The notes beneath the pieces were generated by a model. That model did not search any database, was not told the origin of the DNA, and saw nothing but the letters and a program-made list of their open reading frames with translations. Positions 1,607-9,034 of a stretch of 9,361 nt of DNA are shown one piece after another (positions within the stretch are counted from its first letter, which is position 1; the number at the start of each line of letters is the position of its first letter). The translations under genes and the position numbers were made by a program. Origin of the DNA: Gammaproteobacteria bacterium (GTDB taxonomy: Bacteria; Pseudomonadota; Gammaproteobacteria; Granulosicoccales; Granulosicoccaceae); the NCBI GenBank assembly GCA_019634245.1, contig JAHQVR010000057.1, positions 1 to 9,361 of the forward strand. Reading direction: 5' to 3'.

Positions 1607-2071
1607 TTGTGTGGCGGCTTGGTGGATAGCGAGCACGACGGTTCTTTCGTATTTCGGCTTGATCCAACTTCAGATGAGCCGAGCACAGTGGTCACTGATT
1701 TTGTCAAACCCAATGGCCAGGCTTGCTCACCCGAGTCCTTGCTTTATATAGTTGATACCGGAGCCACAGATGTTGAAGACGGCCCACAGCACATTCGTGT
1801 CTTCGAAGTGACCTATGACAGTACACTGTCTAACGGTCGTATCTTTGCCACCTGTGAAACTGAGCTATTTGATGGTTTTCGGATTGGTACCAATGACAAT
1901 GTGTGGACTTCTGCAGGTGACGGCTTGCATTGTTATACGCCCGAGGGAGAGTTAATTGGCAAGATACTGATCAATGATGTTGTAGCCAACGTTGAGTTTG
2001 GTGAGATCAAACGCAATCGGCTTTTTAGTTGTGCAACACGAAGCCTGCATGCTGTCTGTCTCAATACTTAG
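1607..2071 (+). pseudogene. SMP-30/gluconolactonase family, C-terminal fragment
   Basis: A 154-codon open frame matches the C-terminal half of SMP-30/gluconolactonase/LRE-like beta-propellers, which hydrolyse sugar lactones using a divalent metal and are normally about 300 residues long. Recognisable blocks (numbered from the TTG at 1607) are FVKPNG with Asn36, LLYIVDTGAT, SNGRIFATC, the FDGF segment with Asp89, NVWTSAGDGLHCYTPEG and the terminal KRNRLF..ATRSL.AV.LNT. Asn36 and Asp89 correspond in type to two family metal ligands, but the N-terminal blades and their acidic ligand are missing. The SPESLLY segment appears one residue shorter than the usual SPDESLLY. The frame opens only from a TTG with no ribosome-binding site, and no matching N-terminal sequence lies upstream in any frame I read. 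I infer a 5'-truncated pseudogene whose remainder has not yet gained stops. Confidence 0.8.
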
Positions 2072-2235: not shown

Positions 2236-4500
2236 CTAGCTCTCGCGTTTCAAATCAAATCGATCAAGTTGCATGACTTTAGTCCAGGCGAACACAAAAT
2301 CGTTAACGAAACGTTCTTTGGCATCGTCATATGCATAAACTTCTGCTACTGCCCGCAACTCCGAATTGGATCCAAAAATTAAATCCACTGGCGTAGCACT
2401 ATATTTAATCTGCTCGGATTGACGATCAACCCCTTCAAACAAACCTTCATCTGCCGCCTTACGCCATACCGTCGACATATCTAAAAGATTAATGAAAAAG
2501 TCATTACTCAACGTACCGGGTGCATCAGTAAACACACCATGCGGGACACCATCAACGTTGGCATCCATCGCTCGCATACCTCCAAGCAGAACAGTCATCT
2601 CTGGAATAGTCAGATTGAGTTGATCGGCTTTATCAACAAGCATCTCTGTTGGGGATTTGTAACTTTTTTCTGTATCGAAGTAGTTGCGAAACGCATCGGC
2701 TGAAGGTTCTAATAGTGAAAAGGATGCAACATCTGTTTGCTCCTGTGACGCATCAGCGCGACCTGAAACGAACGGTACATCCACTTCCACACCTGCATTC
2801 ATTGCCGCCTTCTCAATTGCGGCGGCTCCTGCAAGTACAATCAAGTCAGCCAATGATATATTTACCGAAGCGTTGCCTTGTATCTCTTTTAGTTTGTCAA
2901 GCACTTTGCCCAGCTCATCGGGATTGTTCACTGCCCAGCTAATTTGCGGCTCTAGCTGAATCCGCGCACCGTTAGCCCCACCACGCATGTCACTTGCACG
3001 GAAGCTGGACGCTGCACCCCAAGCTGTTCTAACAAGTTCAGGAACCGTTAAGCCCGACCCGAGGATGTTAGCCTTTAACTCATCAATGGTATTTTCTTCA
3101 AGAAGCAATTCCGATGCAGCTGGAATTGGATCTTGCCAGAGCAATTCCTCTGTGGGTGCACTGTTACCAAGGTATCGGCTACGTGGTCCAAGGTCACGAT
3201 GCGTCAGCTTGTACCAGGCTTTGGCAAACGCCAGTTCATAAGCGTCAGGATCGGCGCGGAAACGCTCTACGATTTTTTTATACTCCGGGTCCGCCTTCAG
3301 GGCCAGATCGGCTGTGGTCATCACAGGGGGATTGAACTTCCCTTCAACGTGAGCATCCGGTACGATCTTATGCAAAGATTCATCACTCGGAATCCACTGA
3401 ATCGCACCAACTGGACTTTTAGTTTCCACCCAATCAAAATCAAGCAGATTGCTTAGATACAATGTAGTCCATTGTGTTGGTGCTTGCGTCCAGGCACCTT
3501 CTAATCCACTGGTTATTGTGTCTTCTGAATGCCCCTTACCGCACGAGTTTTTCCAGCCAAGCCCTTGTGATTCAGTCGATGCACCTCCCGGCTCTACACC
3601 AACACAATCACCCGCTCGTGCACCATGCATTTTTCCAAAGGTGTGGCCACCGGCGATAAGTGCGACAGTTTCTTCATCGTTCATCGCCATTCGACCGAAT
3701 GCCGTGCGAATATTGGCTGCCGATGCGACTGGGTCCGGATTACCCTTTGGCCCTTCCGGATTAACGTAAATCAGCCCCATGTGCATTGCTGCGAGAGGAC
3801 GCTGAAGCTTACCCTCGCGATCTTGGCGATCACTGGCAAGCATCTCAACTTCTGGTCCCCAATAGACAAGATCGGGCTCCCAGTCATCGGTACGACCACC
3901 TGCAAAACCGTAAGATTTAAACCCCATACTCTCCATGCCAACCGTACCGGCAAGGATCATTAAATCACCCCAGGAAATTCCAGCGCCGTATTTTTTCTTA
4001 ATCGGCCACAGCAAGCGACGCGCTTTGTCAAGGTTGCCGTTGTCTGGCCAACTGTTGAGCGGATCAAACCGCATCTGACCACCATCACCACCTCCTCGTC
4101 CATCCAGTGTGCGATAGGTTCCAGCGCTATGCCAGGCCATGCGTATAAAAAATGGTCCGTAGTGACCAAAGTCAGCCGGCCACCAGTCCTGCGAGTTTGT
4201 CAGCACTGCAGTGACATCCGCCTTCAGGGCGTCAAAATTCAGACGATCAAATGCAGTTGCATAGTTAAAGTCCGCTCCGAGTGGATTTGAGCGAGTGTCG
4301 TGATCTCGCAATGCGCTTAAATCCAATTGTTCAGGCCACCAAAAATTGTTTTTTTTCGCCGCACCAGACAGAGCAGCACTTTCTGGATTTTCTGTTGTCG
4401 TAGAGTCTTGAGCAAATAGGGTCTGTGATGTAGCCGCGCTGATGGCGATCAACATTATGCCTATTTTTTTTAACACGATTGATTTACGAATTAAGTCCAT
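2236..4500 (-). CDS. katG: Catalase-peroxidase KatG, exported form
   Basis: This bifunctional haem enzyme breaks down H2O2 by catalase and peroxidase reactions. From the ATG at 4500 it has 754 residues. The N-terminal active half carries the distal triad Arg120, Trp123, His124 in [11 protein letters not shown], Tyr213 in LVYWGPE and Met241 in [11 protein letters not shown] (with Trp123, the Met-Tyr-Trp crosslink needed for catalase activity), proximal His286 in GGHTFGK and Trp316 in GLGWK; Asp398 is the likely proximal Asp. The degenerate C-terminal peroxidase-like half starts near residue 425. Residues 1-30 form a signal peptide (basic start, then hydrophobic [11 protein letters not shown], probable cleavage at TLFA/QD), predicting a periplasmic enzyme like E. 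coli KatP. The start at 4500 is preferred because AAGGAAAA lies just upstream; the in-frame ATG at 4518 (760 residues) lacks a ribosome-binding site and puts six residues before the signal. The gene is divergent from oxyR and probably under its control. Confidence 0.95.
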
Positions 4501-4518
4501 AGAGTTTTCCTTTGCCAT

Positions 4519-4774
4519 AAAAAATTTTAATTAATATATTTCAACTGATAAACCGTGCACATGAACGCGAATGATCATTGAGGCTGTTACAACGAACGGA
4601 GGTGATGGACAAGCTCTATATAAATATGATTCTTTCCGGGTCAGCCAGTCGTCTCAGGTAAGCAAATCCCCAGCACTTGAACGCCTGGTACTAAAAATAA
4701 ATAAATTACCGCCTATAAAACAATCGTTTGTTCTGATGAGTTTGATAGGTCTAACCGATAGAATGGAAAAATAG
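4519..4774. promoter_or_regulatory. Divergent katG-oxyR control region
   Basis: About 256 bases separate the divergently oriented katG and oxyR, so both promoters should lie here. On the katG side the sequence is very AT-rich (4519-4545), with a possible -10 of TATATT on the minus strand about 20 bases before the upstream ATG. No good -35 accompanies it, which would suit an activator-dependent promoter. On the oxyR side the best recognisable signal is an OxyR-like half-operator at 4745-4759, listed separately. Promoter positions are inferred and weak. Confidence 0.45.
4723..4759 (+). promoter_or_regulatory. Candidate OxyR operator upstream of oxyR
   Basis: The E. coli OxyR site consists of two tandem copies of ATAGnTnnnAnCTAT separated by seven bases. 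The 15-mer ATAGGTCTAACCGAT at 4745-4759 matches nine of the ten fixed positions. A second 15-mer in exact register seven bases upstream, ATCGTTTGTTCTGAT at 4723-4737, matches six of ten. The pair ends 15 bases before the oxyR TTG start, so bound OxyR could repress its own gene, as E. coli OxyR does. It is more than 200 bases from the katG start, so a direct role in katG activation is less obvious. By-eye match only. Confidence 0.4.
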
Positions 4775-5650
4775 TTGAACATAAAGGACCTGCGCTATTT
4801 GATGGCAGTAGCTGAGCTGGAACACTTCAGTCAGGCCGCTGATCAGTGTAATGTGAGTCAACCGACTCTCAGCGGCCAAATCAAAAAGTTAGAAGAAGAA
4901 CTGGATGTTTTACTGTTCGAGCGAACCAATCGTCGAGTAATGCTGACCGAAGCTGGCCAGCATGTCTTCCGATCGGCCCAGCGAATCTTGAATGAAGTAG
5001 ATACTATCTATCGTACTGCTCAAAGCAAACAGGATCCGCTGATGGGCAAATTCCGCTTGGGTGCATTTCCCACCATATCAACGTATCTGTTTCCGTCTCT
5101 GGTGCAACAAGTTAAGACAGCTATGCCGAATCTCCGGTTGATCTTAAAGGAGGAAAAAACGCCCATTCTTTTCGATGATCTTCGATATGGTCGTATCGAT
5201 GCTGCGTTGCTCGTATTACCCGTGCACGATCAAAGCTTATCGAGCCTCAAGCTGTTTGTTGATGACTTCTATCTTGCTGTGTCGCCGGGCCATGAACTCA
5301 CAAAGCACACGACAATTGAGCAGAAGGACCTGTGGCAACACAATCCCTTACTGCTCGAGGAGTGGCGTAGCTTACGTAATCAAACATCGCCAATCTGTAA
5401 CAGTGATGAAGAACAGGATTACAGGGCTACGGGCCTGGAAAGTTTACGGCAAATGGTAAAAGCCGGTATTGGTATTACTATTGTGCCAAAAATCGCCATG
5501 CAAGAAAACGAAACTGGTATTGAATACATCCCATTTGTACCGCCAGTGCCATCGCGTACGATCGGTTTGGTTTGGCGAAAGAGCAGCTCCAAAGCGGTGG
5601 TTATTGAATTTTTATCACAGGCTATTTTAAAGTCCAGCGGACTAGCTTAG
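4775..5650 (+). CDS. oxyR: OxyR-type LysR regulator with Ser199 replacing the peroxidatic Cys
   Basis: This 291-residue LysR-family activator is colinear with E. coli OxyR. The N-terminal winged helix-turn-helix (about 1-60) has the OxyR signature MNIKDLRYLMAVAE, CNVSQPTLSGQIKKLE and LFERTNRRVMLTEAG. The effector domain (about 90-285) keeps FPT (Thr100), DYRATGLESLRQMVKAGIGIT and PSRTIGLVWR. In the redox loop, E. coli has Cys199 in GHCLRDQ and Cys208 in GFC. Here the loop reads EEWRSLRNQTSPIC, giving Ser199 (AGC codon, 5369-5371) and Cys208 (TGT). The only other cysteine is Cys25 in the DNA-binding domain. The peroxidatic thiol is therefore absent and the classic Cys199-Cys208 disulfide cannot form. 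The start is TTG at 4775, chosen because it yields the conserved MNIKDL terminus; a weak GGAAAA precedes it. Divergence from katG supports the OxyR assignment. Whether it still senses peroxide is open. Confidence 0.9.
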   Translation: MNIKDLRYLMAVAELEHFSQAADQCNVSQPTLSGQIKKLEEELDVLLFERTNRRVMLTEAGQHVFRSAQRILNEVDTIYRTAQSKQDPLMGKFRLGAFPTISTYLFPSLVQQVKTAMPNLRLILKEEKTPILFDDLRYGRIDAALLVLPVHDQSLSSLKLFVDDFYLAVSPGHELTKHTTIEQKDLWQHNPLLLEEWRSLRNQTSPICNSDEEQDYRATGLESLRQMVKAGIGITIVPKIAMQENETGIEYIPFVPPVPSRTIGLVWRKSSSKAVVIEFLSQAILKSSGLA

Positions 5651-6047: not shown

Positions 6048-6875
6048 TTAGGTTGCGTGCAAGTTTTTTGCTGCGAGATAAATTCCATCAATTACTTTGC
6101 GCACTGATGGTTGGTACTGTTCGTCAGGGTGTGTCACTAACCACTGGTCGTGAGATAGCTCTCCAATCGTCGAAGTCACGCGAATTAGCGATTCAGATTT
6201 GTCACCAACAAAAGTCGGTAGCACTGCTCGACCGACTCCTGTTTCTAGAAGGTCAAGAGCATTTCTAGGTGACGTTACCTCTATTGCCGAGTTACTGCTT
6301 GTATTACTTTGAGCCCAAAGTGCGGAGGGAGTTTCTTGATGAACCAATATCCAGTCCTTTACACTTTTATTCTTCGCGTAGCCAGCGAATTGAACTCGTC
6401 CAATTTTACGACAAACGAGGTTACCTTGAGTTGGCCGGAAGTTTCGTATTCCGATAGTCGTTTCGCGACGGGAAATATCAAGTACCGCTTCAGCAGCTAT
6501 AAATCGAATTCGAACATCGCTAGCTGGTTTGGTTATGTAATTAATGTTTTTACACAAACCATACGACATCCAACTTCCGGCAGATACCTTAACTAGTGCT
6601 TTTTTATCGAATTGAGTGGAGCTGCTTAAGGATAATATTCCTGATTCAAAAGCGGCGATCTTTTTAAATATCTTTTGTCCTTCCTCTGTTAATTCATAAC
6701 CTCTGGGAAGTCTATGAAATAGATCTGTACCGGTAAGTCTCTCAAGCAGTAGCATTCGCCTGCCAAGCGTAGGGGCGCTCTTTCCAGTCAGCCGGGCGGC
6801 CCCGGCCAGTCCGCGCTCCCTGGCCACAGCCATGAACAGCCGCCAGTTATCCCAATCTGAGTTCATTTCATCCAT
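6048..6875 (-). CDS. LysR-family transcriptional regulator
   Basis: A 275-residue LysR-type regulator. Residues of about 8-68 form the winged helix-turn-helix: WDNWRLFMAVARERGLAGAA, SAPTLGRRMLLLE and LFHRLPRGYELTEEG follow the usual LysR pattern. From about residue 92 to the end is the substrate-binding-like effector domain, with the late motifs LLETGVGRAVLPTFVGD and WLVTHPDEQYQPSVRKVID that are typical of this LysR subgroup. The start was placed at the ATG at 6875; a second ATG at 6866 (272 residues) is equally plausible and has GGATGAA before it. A longer frame from a TTG at 6959 adds 28 residues without family character. The gene is divergent from the aldo/keto reductase 85 bases away, the arrangement expected of a LysR regulator controlling its neighbour, and palindromes overlap its start. 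The inducer is unknown. Confidence 0.9.
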   Translation of the reverse strand: MDEMNSDWDNWRLFMAVARERGLAGAARLTGKSAPTLGRRMLLLERLTGTDLFHRLPRGYELTEEGQKIFKKIAAFESGILSLSSSTQFDKKALVKVSAGSWMSYGLCKNINYITKPASDVRIRFIAAEAVLDISRRETTIGIRNFRPTQGNLVCRKIGRVQFAGYAKNKSVKDWILVHQETPSALWAQSNTSSNSAIEVTSPRNALDLLETGVGRAVLPTFVGDKSESLIRVTSTIGELSHDQWLVTHPDEQYQPSVRKVIDGIYLAAKNLHAT

Positions 6876-6904
6876 GAAATGAGTATTCCATTTCGTTTCA
6901 TGGA
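6862..6904. promoter_or_regulatory. Nested inverted repeats, probable LysR operator
   Basis: Several arms based on TTTCAT/ATGAAA overlap here. CATTTCAT and ATGAAATG (6864-6871 and 6874-6881) form a perfect 8-bp repeat around CC. TCCATGAAA (6871-6879) and TTTCATGGA (6896-6904) form a perfect 9-bp repeat. GAAATG (6876-6881) with CATTTC (6889-6894) forms a third. The cluster covers the start codon(s) of the lysR gene and lies 56 bases before the reductase start, so the regulator could bind here to control both genes and itself. Position and symmetry are seen; binding is inferred. Confidence 0.5.
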
Positions 6905-6959
6905 TTTCCAGCCCTGCTGCAGGCAATATTCGGCAATGTTTAATATTTGGGGTGTTCAA

Positions 6960-7946
6960 ATGAAAGAAGAAATCAAAAGCGTAGCTCCGTTGGGTATGGG
7001 CTGTTGGGCGATTGGTGGTCCGTTCTATTCTGGAGAGGAAAGTTTAGGTTGGGGAGTTGTGGATGATGCGCAATCTATTCGTGCGTTGCACGCCGCCTAC
7101 GATCACGGGATAAGAATATTTGACACTGCCGCTGTTTATGGAGCTGGTCATTCAGAACGCATCGTCGGGGAAGCACTTAAAGGTCGTAACGACTGTCTGG
7201 TGGTAACTAAATTCGGACTGCGGTTTGATGAAGTGAGTAAACAGGTGTTAGGCACTAATACTGACCCGGCGCATGTTGCTTTAGCTATTGATGAAAGTTT
7301 AATCCGCTTACAACGTGAATCAATAGATCTATTGTTGCTTCACCTAAATGATCTGTCTACTGGAATCGCTGACCCCTTGTTTCACGAGATGACAAAGGCG
7401 TGTGAAAACGGAAAAATCAAAAGTTTCGGGTGGAGTACTGATTATCCGGATAGTGTAAAAGTAGCAGCCAGGTACGATAACTTCGTTGCAGTAGAGCACT
7501 GCATGAACGTATTCGTGGACACACCAACGATCCAAAAAGAGATCACCAATAATAATCTTATCCCTCTGATACGGTCACCATTGGCTATGGGTGTTTTAAC
7601 AGGTAAATATACTGCAGAAACCAGATTCCCCAAGAACGATAATCGATCACGTGAGGAGGCATGGCGTGATTATTTTGTAGATTCATCGGTCGCTCCTATT
7701 CATTTAAGAAATCTGGAAGCCGTGCGTGAATGCTTAATGAACGGCGGGCGTACGCTTACTCAAGGTGCGCTCAACTGGATTATGGCCAAATCTCCAGTGA
7801 ATATTCCAATACCTGGTGCTCGCACGGCTGATCAAATTATTGAAAGTGCCCGCTCAGTTGAGTTTGGGCCGTTGCCTGAAAATATTATGGATGAGATTGA
7901 AGCCTTGATAGAGCGTAGTCCGGAGGGTGAACCTAGAGATAGATAG
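6960..7946 (+). CDS. Aldo/keto reductase
   Basis: A 328-residue member of the aldo/keto reductase superfamily: an NADPH-dependent, cytoplasmic TIM-barrel enzyme that reduces carbonyl groups of sugars, aldehydes or ketones. The catalytic tetrad is visible as Asp55 and Tyr60 in FDTAAVYGAGHSE, Lys84 in VVTKFG and His128 in LLLHLND. The opening LGMGCWAIGGPF, the GKIKSFGWST strand and the C-terminal cofactor-binding PIPGARTADQIIES complete the family pattern, which resembles the IolS/YdjG-like group more than the classical aldose reductases. The ATG at 6960 was chosen because it starts the first barrel strand and follows TTGGGGTG at a suitable distance; the in-frame extension to 6879 would run through the operator palindromes. 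It is probably controlled by the divergent LysR gene. The substrate is not determinable. Confidence 0.94.
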   Translation: MKEEIKSVAPLGMGCWAIGGPFYSGEESLGWGVVDDAQSIRALHAAYDHGIRIFDTAAVYGAGHSERIVGEALKGRNDCLVVTKFGLRFDEVSKQVLGTNTDPAHVALAIDESLIRLQRESIDLLLLHLNDLSTGIADPLFHEMTKACENGKIKSFGWSTDYPDSVKVAARYDNFVAVEHCMNVFVDTPTIQKEITNNNLIPLIRSPLAMGVLTGKYTAETRFPKNDNRSREEAWRDYFVDSSVAPIHLRNLEAVRECLMNGGRTLTQGALNWIMAKSPVNIPIPGARTADQIIESARSVEFGPLPENIMDEIEALIERSPEGEPRDR

Positions 7947-8257
7947 TTACTATTACCCAATTCTTTTGGTTCAATTGCAATAAAACTAATTGAATCTTCT
8001 CCTAAGAAGACGTGCACCCCAATCATCGGAATGAAAGCAATGGGCACGTTAACAACCAACGTGGCACAGAATAATCGATATTGAAAATTCCATTCAATTG
8101 AAGAAACAATCAATGTCAATTCAAAGCAACTAGAAACATCTCCAGCTTAGTTGTTAATTAATGACACAAAGGCGAGTACTTTTACCGGTGATTCAATAAT
8201 GTTTATTTTGTTTTTAGTTTTATAGTGAATCTCCTTTAGTAATTTGTGAGAACCTTT
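7947..8257. other. AT-rich intergenic region with several inverted repeats
   Basis: No gene is convincing in these roughly 310 bases. Four symmetric elements stand out: TTCAATT/AATTGAA (7970-7976, 7988-7994), TCTTCT/AGAAGA (7995-8000, 8005-8010), CACGTT/AACGTG (8045-8050, 8058-8063) and the palindrome TTCAATTGAA (8093-8102). None has a T-run, so the end of the reductase transcript is not clearly marked. A possible -10, TATAGT at 8221-8226, would serve the secreted-protein gene, without a good -35. A minus-strand open frame crosses 7950-8119 but lacks a good start and continues antisense into the reductase. Confidence 0.4.
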
Positions 8258-9034
8258 ATGTTGATACAAGTACAAAAAGCTGCATTCATACTCTTTGCAG
8301 CAGCATACATTTTATTTACTCATGCGAATGTTGCGAACGCAGCGGGAACATTTACGCCACCTAGTGGCACTGTCGTGACTGCGTCTCCAATGACAATCGG
8401 TTGGAACTCAACCGCATCGCAACAATGGATCCGAATCTACGATACTTCAACTGGCGCTAAGATATTTGATTCAGGCAGACAAGTCTCAATGAACGGATCG
8501 ATTTCAGCTGTTGTCGCTGATGATATCTCGGAAATTCGAATTGTATTTTTTGAAAAAACGTCCGCTGGAGGCTGGGAGAATCAGCAGCGAATTTTAGCTG
8601 TCAACATTAATGGGCAGGGAACGGGCGGCTCTGGGCCGGTCATTGTTTCGCAACGTATTACTTGTACAGATGAAGTTGGCCCTCAATTACCTGCTGCACA
8701 AACTCAACCTGCATGGCAGCCATTTGATTATCAATTTGATTGGGAAGGATCTCCTGCTTTAACTTGTAATCTCTCTTGTCCCCAAGGTGAATACCTAATG
8801 GCAGTTGACTGTGTTTCCGGATTTTTGGTTGGGTTAGATAATACGTCGAATAGACGCACATTAGTATCGGAACTAAAATACTCTGACGCATCAACTGCAA
8901 GCTGTTCTATGTATGAACAAACTGAAGCGTACGCATACCTTGGTAACGGGCCTGACATTAATGGTACGGGTCTGAAAGAGTTTGTATGGGCTCTAAGTCT
9001 TGATGCGTCCGGCGCTTGTATGAGCATTCGTTAG
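8258..9034 (+). CDS. Secreted protein of unknown function, Ig-like domain plus Cys-rich domain
   Basis: I do not recognise this as a named family. From the ATG at 8258 it has 258 residues. Residues 1-28 are a signal peptide (MLIQVQK, hydrophobic AAFILFAAAYILF, then NVANA/AG), so the protein is exported. Residues of about 29-118 look like a small beta-sandwich of Ig/fibronectin type: FTPPSGTVVTASPMTIGWN and WIRIYDTSTGAKIFDSG match the strand pattern of such extracellular modules. A Gly-rich linker (GQGTGGSG) at about 119-126 leads to a C-terminal domain with six cysteines (136, 170, 174, 185, 216, 254), enough for three disulfides. The GTG at 8246 would add four residues, but GAGAACC lies before the ATG at 8258 and favours it. 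It is monocistronic in view. A surface-binding or adhesion role is possible but unsupported. Confidence 0.75.
   Translation: MLIQVQKAAFILFAAAYILFTHANVANAAGTFTPPSGTVVTASPMTIGWNSTASQQWIRIYDTSTGAKIFDSGRQVSMNGSISAVVADDISEIRIVFFEKTSAGGWENQQRILAVNINGQGTGGSGPVIVSQRITCTDEVGPQLPAAQTQPAWQPFDYQFDWEGSPALTCNLSCPQGEYLMAVDCVSGFLVGLDNTSNRRTLVSELKYSDASTASCSMYEQTEAYAYLGNGPDINGTGLKEFVWALSLDASGACMSIR

What the first reader, a model, noticed from the sequence alone, without database searches (positions are those of the whole stretch)
5369..5398. OxyR with Ser at position 199 in place of the peroxidatic cysteine
Seen: numbering coincides exactly with E. coli OxyR. Position 199 is Ser (AGC, one base from TGC) within EEWRSLRNQ, and Cys208 is kept. 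His198 is Arg and Asp202 is Asn. Known: Cys199 is the H2O2-reactive thiol that pairs with Cys208, and the C199S form of E. coli OxyR is not activated by peroxide. Inference: this protein is either locked in the reduced DNA-binding state, acting as a constitutive regulator or repressor of katG and itself, or senses something by another route, perhaps through Cys208.
Basis: partly seen in the sequence, partly recalled or inferred. Interest (0 to 1): 0.75.

Follow-up and report, generated by a model that had tools for sequence, protein, structure and literature searches.

The report
Peroxide-sensor OxyR lacking its sensing cysteine
In a small group of bacteria known so far from short sequence fragments, the standard hydrogen-peroxide sensor OxyR has lost the cysteine with which it detects peroxide but keeps its DNA-binding half, and at least here its binding site beside a catalase gene, so it probably controls that gene without sensing peroxide in the usual way.

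Summary
The ORF at 4775-5650 (+) is an OxyR-lineage LysR regulator with Ser199 (AGC, 5369-5371), Arg198, Asn202 and Cys208. It is not a sequencing error. Three further proteins (86, 74 and 73% identical) also lack Cys199 (Ser, Ser, Asn) and form one fully supported clade. The other 127 of 127 nearest listed proteins have Cys199, Cys208 and Gly197. Two of the four have also lost Cys208, which argues against clade-wide sensing through Cys208.

At positions invariant in 116 canonical relatives, the clade changed 6 of 9 in the redox segment but 3 of 51 elsewhere. A conserved OxyR operator lies between oxyR and a divergent katG whose product has a likely export signal. I conclude that the thiol switch was lost while DNA binding was kept.

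The locked state is unresolved. I lean towards a peroxide-blind, constitutively active regulator, because some changed positions coincide with E. coli activating alleles; the predicted fold resembles reduced OxyR slightly more. A natural one-cysteine OxyR is already known in Deinococcus. No genome is held for the window, so a second OxyR could not be sought there; four of nine related genomes have one.

The parts
4775..5650 (+). OxyR-lineage LysR-type regulator, 291 aa, TTG start, lacking Cys199
   Evidence: HTH_1 and LysR_substrate; best NCBIfam model is OxyR PRK11151, 248.9 bits, below its cut-off of 329; best PDB sequence match P. aeruginosa OxyR, E 1.8e-53
5369..5371 (+). codon AGC, Ser199 in place of the peroxidatic cysteine
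5396..5398 (+). codon TGT, Cys208 (resolving cysteine); kept in the window and P0003, lost in P0004 and P0005
5363..5365 (+). codon TGG, Trp197; Gly in 127 of 127 canonical neighbours, Trp in 4 of 4 clade members
5345..5347 (+). codon CCC, Pro191; Pro in 4 of 4 clade members, Leu in 98% of 116 canonical neighbours
5366..5368 (+). codon CGT, Arg198; Arg in 2 of 4 clade members, His in 116 of 116 canonical neighbours
4723..4759 (.). OxyR-type operator (four ATAG-like elements), 15 of 20 consensus bases; best match in the whole window
   Evidence: aligned with the same spacing in L001, L002, L117 and L129. The consensus is recalled
2236..4518 (-). katG, catalase-peroxidase with an N-terminal hydrophobic, signal-like leader (export inferred), divergent from oxyR
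   Evidence: PRK15061 1163.7 bits, above its cut-off of 981; 5l05 E 9e-277 with [13 protein letters not shown] and GGHTFGK kept; leader read by eye

Best explanation
This is an OxyR whose thiol switch was lost, apparently once, in a small clade; it does not look like a broken gene. It should still bind the old OxyR operator between oxyR and katG and regulate the katG beside it, but it cannot form the Cys199-Cys208 disulphide. Shown by sequence: the loss, its presence in all four clade members, the focused change in the redox segment, the retained DNA-binding domain and, in the window, the retained operator. Inferred: that the protein binds this operator, and the direction of control. I think it most likely that the altered pocket (Trp197, Val or Thr at 147, and in relatives changed 201 and 208 and a shortened loop) holds the regulatory domain in a non-reduced, activating shape, so that katG is expressed without a peroxide signal. 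I put the loss of peroxide switching at about 0.8 and constitutive activation at about 0.4.
For: Clade of four, support 100/100, fewest label changes 1, nested among two-cysteine OxyRs. At 60 positions invariant in 116 canonical neighbours, 6 of 9 in residues 191-208 changed in at least one clade member against 3 of 51 elsewhere, Fisher P 1.2e-4; at looser conservation thresholds 6 of 10 against 5 of 73, and 8 of 15 against 14 of 124; one control set of four canonical proteins changed 0 of 9. The segment was chosen after the loss was known. Of HTH positions conserved in at least 90% of neighbours, 97% are retained. Operator at 4723-4759 is 15 of 20, P 0.003 against first-order Markov sequences, and aligned in four relatives. 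Of the five canonical-invariant positions among the nine named in PMC7038661 passages as evolved or activating, three (147, 201, 208) are changed in the clade, P 0.02, post hoc; the window itself has Val147, and A147V is listed there among E. coli isolates resembling activating alleles. In the window model residues 200-217 have pLDDT under 50 with only a short helix at 197-201, whereas the canonical control P0008 has a helix at its residues 193-202, itself of low confidence (blocks of 60 and 54).
Confidence: 0.45

Rival explanations
1. Locked reduced-like repressor: like laboratory C199S alleles, it holds the reduced form, represses its own gene and does not activate katG, or represses it, leaving induction to a second OxyR.
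For: E. coli C199S is reported locked reduced and Shewanella C203S repressor only; the model fits reduced OxyR slightly better by Z and TM-score; four of nine related genomes carry a second OxyR with both cysteines.
Against: Residues near the switch that canonical relatives keep (Gly197, His198, Arg201, Cys208) and the loop length change in the clade. Neisseria C199S neither repressed nor activated. Whether the window's genome has a second OxyR is unknown.
Confidence: 0.25
2. Changed effector: the pocket now answers a small molecule other than H2O2, as many LysR regulators do, with Trp197 as part of the new site.
For: Pro99, Thr100 and Thr129, named as part of the H2O2 environment, are kept in 4 of 4 although peroxide chemistry at 199 is gone, and Trp197 is fixed in 4 of 4. 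The regulatory domain fold also matches ligand-binding LysR regulators such as BenM, CynR and CysB, as does the canonical control.
Against: Thr100 and Thr129 may be kept for folding. No ligand is suggested by the neighbours, and the adjacent gene is still katG.
Confidence: 0.17
3. Sensing by a remaining cysteine: Cys208 alone as in the one-cysteine Deinococcus OxyR, or Cys25 as in mycobacterial OxyS.
For: Cys208 is kept in the window and P0003; Cys25 is kept in 4 of 4. DrOxyR senses with C210, the Cys208 equivalent, alone and OxyS with Cys25 in the DNA-binding domain.
Against: Cys208 is lost in 2 of 4. Cys25 is also present in 116 of 116 canonical neighbours, so it is no special feature of this clade.
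Confidence: 0.08
4. Decaying gene: an OxyR that lost its role and is drifting to a pseudogene.
For: Lower identity to canonical OxyR than four canonical ones show among themselves (about 61-65 against 71-78%), long stem of 0.46, TTG start.
Against: Four database proteins diverged by up to 27% without a reported break, 97% retention of conserved HTH positions, and a kept operator in the window.
Confidence: 0.05

Closest known systems
Two-cysteine OxyR (E. coli, P. aeruginosa, Neisseria)
   Same: LysR architecture, numbering to 208 without a net gap, operator type, Pro99, Thr100 and Thr129; divergent katG as in several canonical relatives here
   Different: no Cys199; Trp197 for an invariant Gly; loop after 208 shorter; Cys208 lost in two of four clade members
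Laboratory OxyR C199S / C203S alleles
   Same: Ser at the peroxidatic position
   Different: natural, clade-wide and accompanied by Trp197, Pro191 and other changes, so the laboratory phenotype cannot simply be carried over
One-cysteine OxyR of Deinococcus radiodurans (DR0615)
   Same: a natural OxyR without Cys199; in the window protein too the only regulatory-domain cysteine is the 208 equivalent
   Different: two clade relatives lack that cysteine as well; how the two lineages are related was not tested here
Mycobacterial OxyS
   Same: LysR regulator of katG; switch is not the 199/208 pair; Cys25 present
   Different: OxyS is a peroxide-released repressor with three other cysteines; Cys25 here is simply the conserved OxyR residue
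Porphyromonas gingivalis OxyR, described as consistent with a locked-on form (review PMC8115020, passage seen)
   Same: natural OxyR thought to have lost inducibility
   Different: its sequence was not compared here; whether it keeps Cys199 was not tested
Shewanella OxyR L197P, locked in the oxidised state (PMC6416212 passages)
   Same: a proline shortly before the peroxidatic position; the clade has Pro191
   Different: by counting from its Cys203 that site equals E. coli 193, two residues from Pro191; a weak parallel

Membership tests
LysR-type regulators | HTH_1 plus LysR substrate domain | tested here: met
OxyR lineage | phylogenetic position among OxyRs | tested here: met
   nested among two-cysteine OxyRs, sister P0008, branch 97/92, tree of 45 rows
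OxyR lineage | NCBIfam OxyR model PRK11151 over its cut-off of 329 bits | tested here: inconclusive
   248.9 bits, best model but below the cut-off; canonical OxyRs of related genomes also fail it, 0 of 8 and 0 of 1 genomes over it
Two-cysteine OxyR peroxide sensor | peroxidatic Cys199 | tested here: not met
   Ser199; 0 of 4 clade members have Cys
Two-cysteine OxyR peroxide sensor | resolving Cys208 | tested here: met
   present in the window and P0003, absent in P0004 and P0005
Two-cysteine OxyR peroxide sensor | OxyR operator beside a peroxide-defence gene | tested here: met
   4723-4759, 15 of 20, aligned in four relatives; binding itself not tested
Two-cysteine OxyR peroxide sensor | H2O2-dependent activation | not testable with these tools
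   needs the bench
One-cysteine OxyR (Deinococcus type) | only the 208-equivalent cysteine in the regulatory domain | tested here: met
   true of the window protein; not of P0004 and P0005, which have neither
One-cysteine OxyR (Deinococcus type) | that cysteine oxidised to sulphenic acid and needed for sensing | not testable with these tools
   needs the bench
OxyS | Cys25 in the DNA-binding domain as switch, repression of katG | not testable with these tools
   Cys25 is present but also in 116 of 116 canonical OxyRs

The most novel reading that the evidence does not exclude
A natural OxyR lineage that discarded thiol redox sensing altogether (Cys199 in all members, Cys208 too in some) and became a regulator of a probably exported catalase-peroxidase through a rebuilt pocket around Trp197, either constitutive or driven by a ligand other than peroxide.
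Probability: 0.35. Interest if true: 0.7.

Novelty: new variant of a known kind. Interest (0 to 1): 0.52.

Why it matters
OxyR is the textbook thiol switch, and what it does without the switch has been studied mainly with laboratory mutants (my judgement). A natural clade that removed the switch but, at least in the window, kept the operator and its catalase gene is an evolved test of that question. It also warns that a gene annotated as a hydrogen-peroxide-inducible activator need not respond to peroxide. Nine searches of the held library (listings and a few passages seen) gave one natural OxyR without Cys199, the one-cysteine Deinococcus protein, and no report of this clade or of an OxyR that lost both cysteines; most subscription papers are not in that library.

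Tried and rejected
Sequencing error at one base: rejected, since three other proteins lack Cys199 and share linked changes. An alignment placing another cysteine at 199: rejected, as there is no net gap up to 208 and the only other cysteine is Cys25.

Second oxyR in the same genome: could not be tested, no genome held. A genome holding a clade member was sought with alignment A1 in 390, 40, 140, 1, 396 and 369 genomes (sets overlap). None was found: the best genome match scored 417.5 bits, while clade members scored 582-595 bits (another database; bits compared only roughly). The order and class searches drew samples of larger groups and scored at most six candidates a genome.

katG linkage by equal contig length: P0003 and KatG P0134 both report one contig of 4926 bases, taken as the same contig by inference. 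P0004 (6555) and P0005 (3271) have no KatG row of equal contig length among the 120 listed. KatG P0135 (86%, contig 17518) has no OxyR row of that length. Both cases are left unexplained.

OxyR changing faster than KatG: with four canonical pairs (matched by equal contig length or by name), identities fall for both genes in the window and P0003 lineages, more for OxyR, so only weakly informative. A promoter scan of 4450-4850 gave two sites against a mean of 1.1 in shuffles and was not used. Kullik et al. 1995, the main source on constitutive OxyR alleles, was not held. That H198R and A233V are constitutive in E. coli is recalled from no call; a paper search for OxyR with H198R found none, and two listings hold A233V but were not read. 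P0005 has Val233, but so do 3 of 116 canonical proteins.

Rows dropped: P0002 is the window's own protein called from codon 10 and was left out of counts; E. coli OxyR was left out of the 116. The site tests use positions 10-289 and the 116, not the 11 further proteins; a gap in a clade member counts as a change. The 129 OxyR stretches include the same gene fetched more than once; 112 distinct ones remain, all with Cys199 and Cys208; one stretch of the 129 (L128) has Glu197.

Full report
What is there. The ORF at 4775-5650 (+) encodes 291 residues from a TTG start. It has the HTH_1 and LysR_substrate domains. The best NCBIfam model is OxyR PRK11151, 248.9 bits, under its cut-off of 329; canonical OxyRs of related genomes also fall under that cut-off, 0 of 8 and 0 of 1 genomes over it. 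The best solved relative by sequence is P. aeruginosa OxyR, E 1.8e-53. Ser199 is AGC at 5369-5371, next to Trp197 and Arg198, with Asn202 and Cys208. No net gap separates it from E. coli numbering up to 208.

How far the loss goes. One search lists its best 120 of 3104 proteins. P0002 is the window's own. P0003 (86%), P0004 (74%) and P0005 (73%) have Ser, Ser and Asn at 199. The other 116 all have Cys199, Cys208, Gly197 and His198. A profile search with the four listed no further clade member in its best 120, and the 11 new proteins in it have Cys199, Cys208 and Gly197. Of 112 distinct OxyR stretches in the loci fetched by then, 112 have both cysteines. In a tree of 45 rows the four form one clade, 100/100, with a stem of 0.46, sister to P0008, which has both cysteines. 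One loss is the simplest reading, not proof. P0004 and P0005 also lack Cys208; their only aligned cysteine is Cys25.

Focused change, not decay. At the 60 positions invariant in the 116 canonical neighbours, 6 of 9 within 191-208 differ in at least one clade member, against 3 of 51 elsewhere (Fisher P 1.2e-4; the segment was chosen after the loss was known). One set of four canonical proteins taken as a control differs at 0 of 9. HTH positions conserved at 90% or more are retained at 97%. The well-conserved positions changed in every clade member are 191 (Pro), 197 (Trp), 199 (Ser or Asn), 275 (Ser) and 278 (Lys). No DNA of the relatives was available, so dN/dS was not computed.

The neighbourhood. 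katG (2236-4518, -) is divergent from oxyR. Its product has a signal-like leader, read by eye, and matches catalase-peroxidases above cut-off. Divergent katG-oxyR also stands in L001, L002 (the same locus as L113), L117 and L132, and in the more distant L055 and L064. The close canonical relatives L115 and L116 (59 and 58% identical) have neither katG in the stretch held nor the operator.

The operator. Between the window genes lies ATCGTTTGTTCTGATGAGTTTGATAGGTCTAACCGAT at 4723-4759, 15 of 20 consensus bases, the best match in the window, P 0.003 by first-order Markov sequences. L001, L002, L117 and L129 align to it with the same spacing; L001, L002 and L117 score 17, 16 and 16, and the more distant L003 and L118 score 17 and 16. 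L055 is weak (13), L064 scores 14 at the corresponding place, and for L004 only 80 bases upstream were held. The consensus is recalled; four regularly spaced ATAG elements are described in a passage of PMC6416212.

Second OxyR. No genome is held for the window. Of nine related genomes examined for OxyR at E 1e-40, four (G002, G010, G020, G476) have a second match and five have one; these genomes may be incomplete. The second ones have both cysteines (for G476 read from the alignment; that of G020 has Glu197). G476's contig length of 1,895,525 equals that of P0061 and P0202, labelled Halieaceae bacterium IMCC14734 and Candidatus Litorirhabdus singularis; this identity is inferred.

State of the switch. 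Passages seen in papers give conflicting guides. E. coli C199S is locked reduced and Shewanella C203S represses only (PMC6416212); Neisseria C199S is null for both repression and activation (PMC2881104). Activating or evolved alleles in E. coli and V. natriegens map to the redox site, loop and dimer interface, including 147, 200, 201, 208 and 213 (PMC7038661). Of the five of nine named positions that are invariant in canonical neighbours, three (147, 201, 208) are changed in the clade, P 0.02, chosen after the fact; 99 and 107 are not. In the window protein itself only 147 (Val) is. AlphaFold gives pLDDT under 50 for 200-217 in the window model, with a short helix at 197-201, while the P0008 control has a helix at its residues 193-202, also of low confidence. 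Against this, the regulatory domain as a whole fits reduced OxyR a little better than oxidised OxyR by Z and TM-score, though not by Foldseek E-value. I lean to constitutive activation, about 0.4; the peroxide-blind reading (0.8) is the firmer claim.

Verdict. The reduced-lock reading is one of several, and sensing through Cys208 is unlikely clade-wide though open for the window protein, given the one-cysteine Deinococcus OxyR. I file it as a new variant of OxyR, not as a two-cysteine OxyR sensor.

Noticed in passing
1607-2071 (+): SMP-30/gluconolactonase fragment matching only profile positions 115-241 of 246; the N-terminal half is not in this ORF, so it looks truncated.
   Followed up: partly
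4775-4802: All four clade proteins are called in the database from about codon 10 (MAVAEL or MALAEL). In the window the conserved MNIKDL start is a TTG codon, and the sister P0008 also begins late; a non-ATG start may be shared.
   Followed up: partly
protein P0135: The second-closest KatG of another contig (86%, contig of 17518 bases) has no listed OxyR on a contig of that length; its regulator is unknown.
   Followed up: no
6048-6959 (-) and 6879-7946 (+): A divergent LysR regulator and aldo/keto reductase pair whose longest ORFs overlap at their starts; the true starts are probably internal.
   Followed up: no
8246-9034 (+): 262-aa ORF with a signal-like start and several cysteines in its C-terminal half, without any Pfam match at E 0.001.
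   Followed up: no
L004: A Myxococcota-labelled contig with oxyR followed by two katG genes in the same direction.
   Followed up: no
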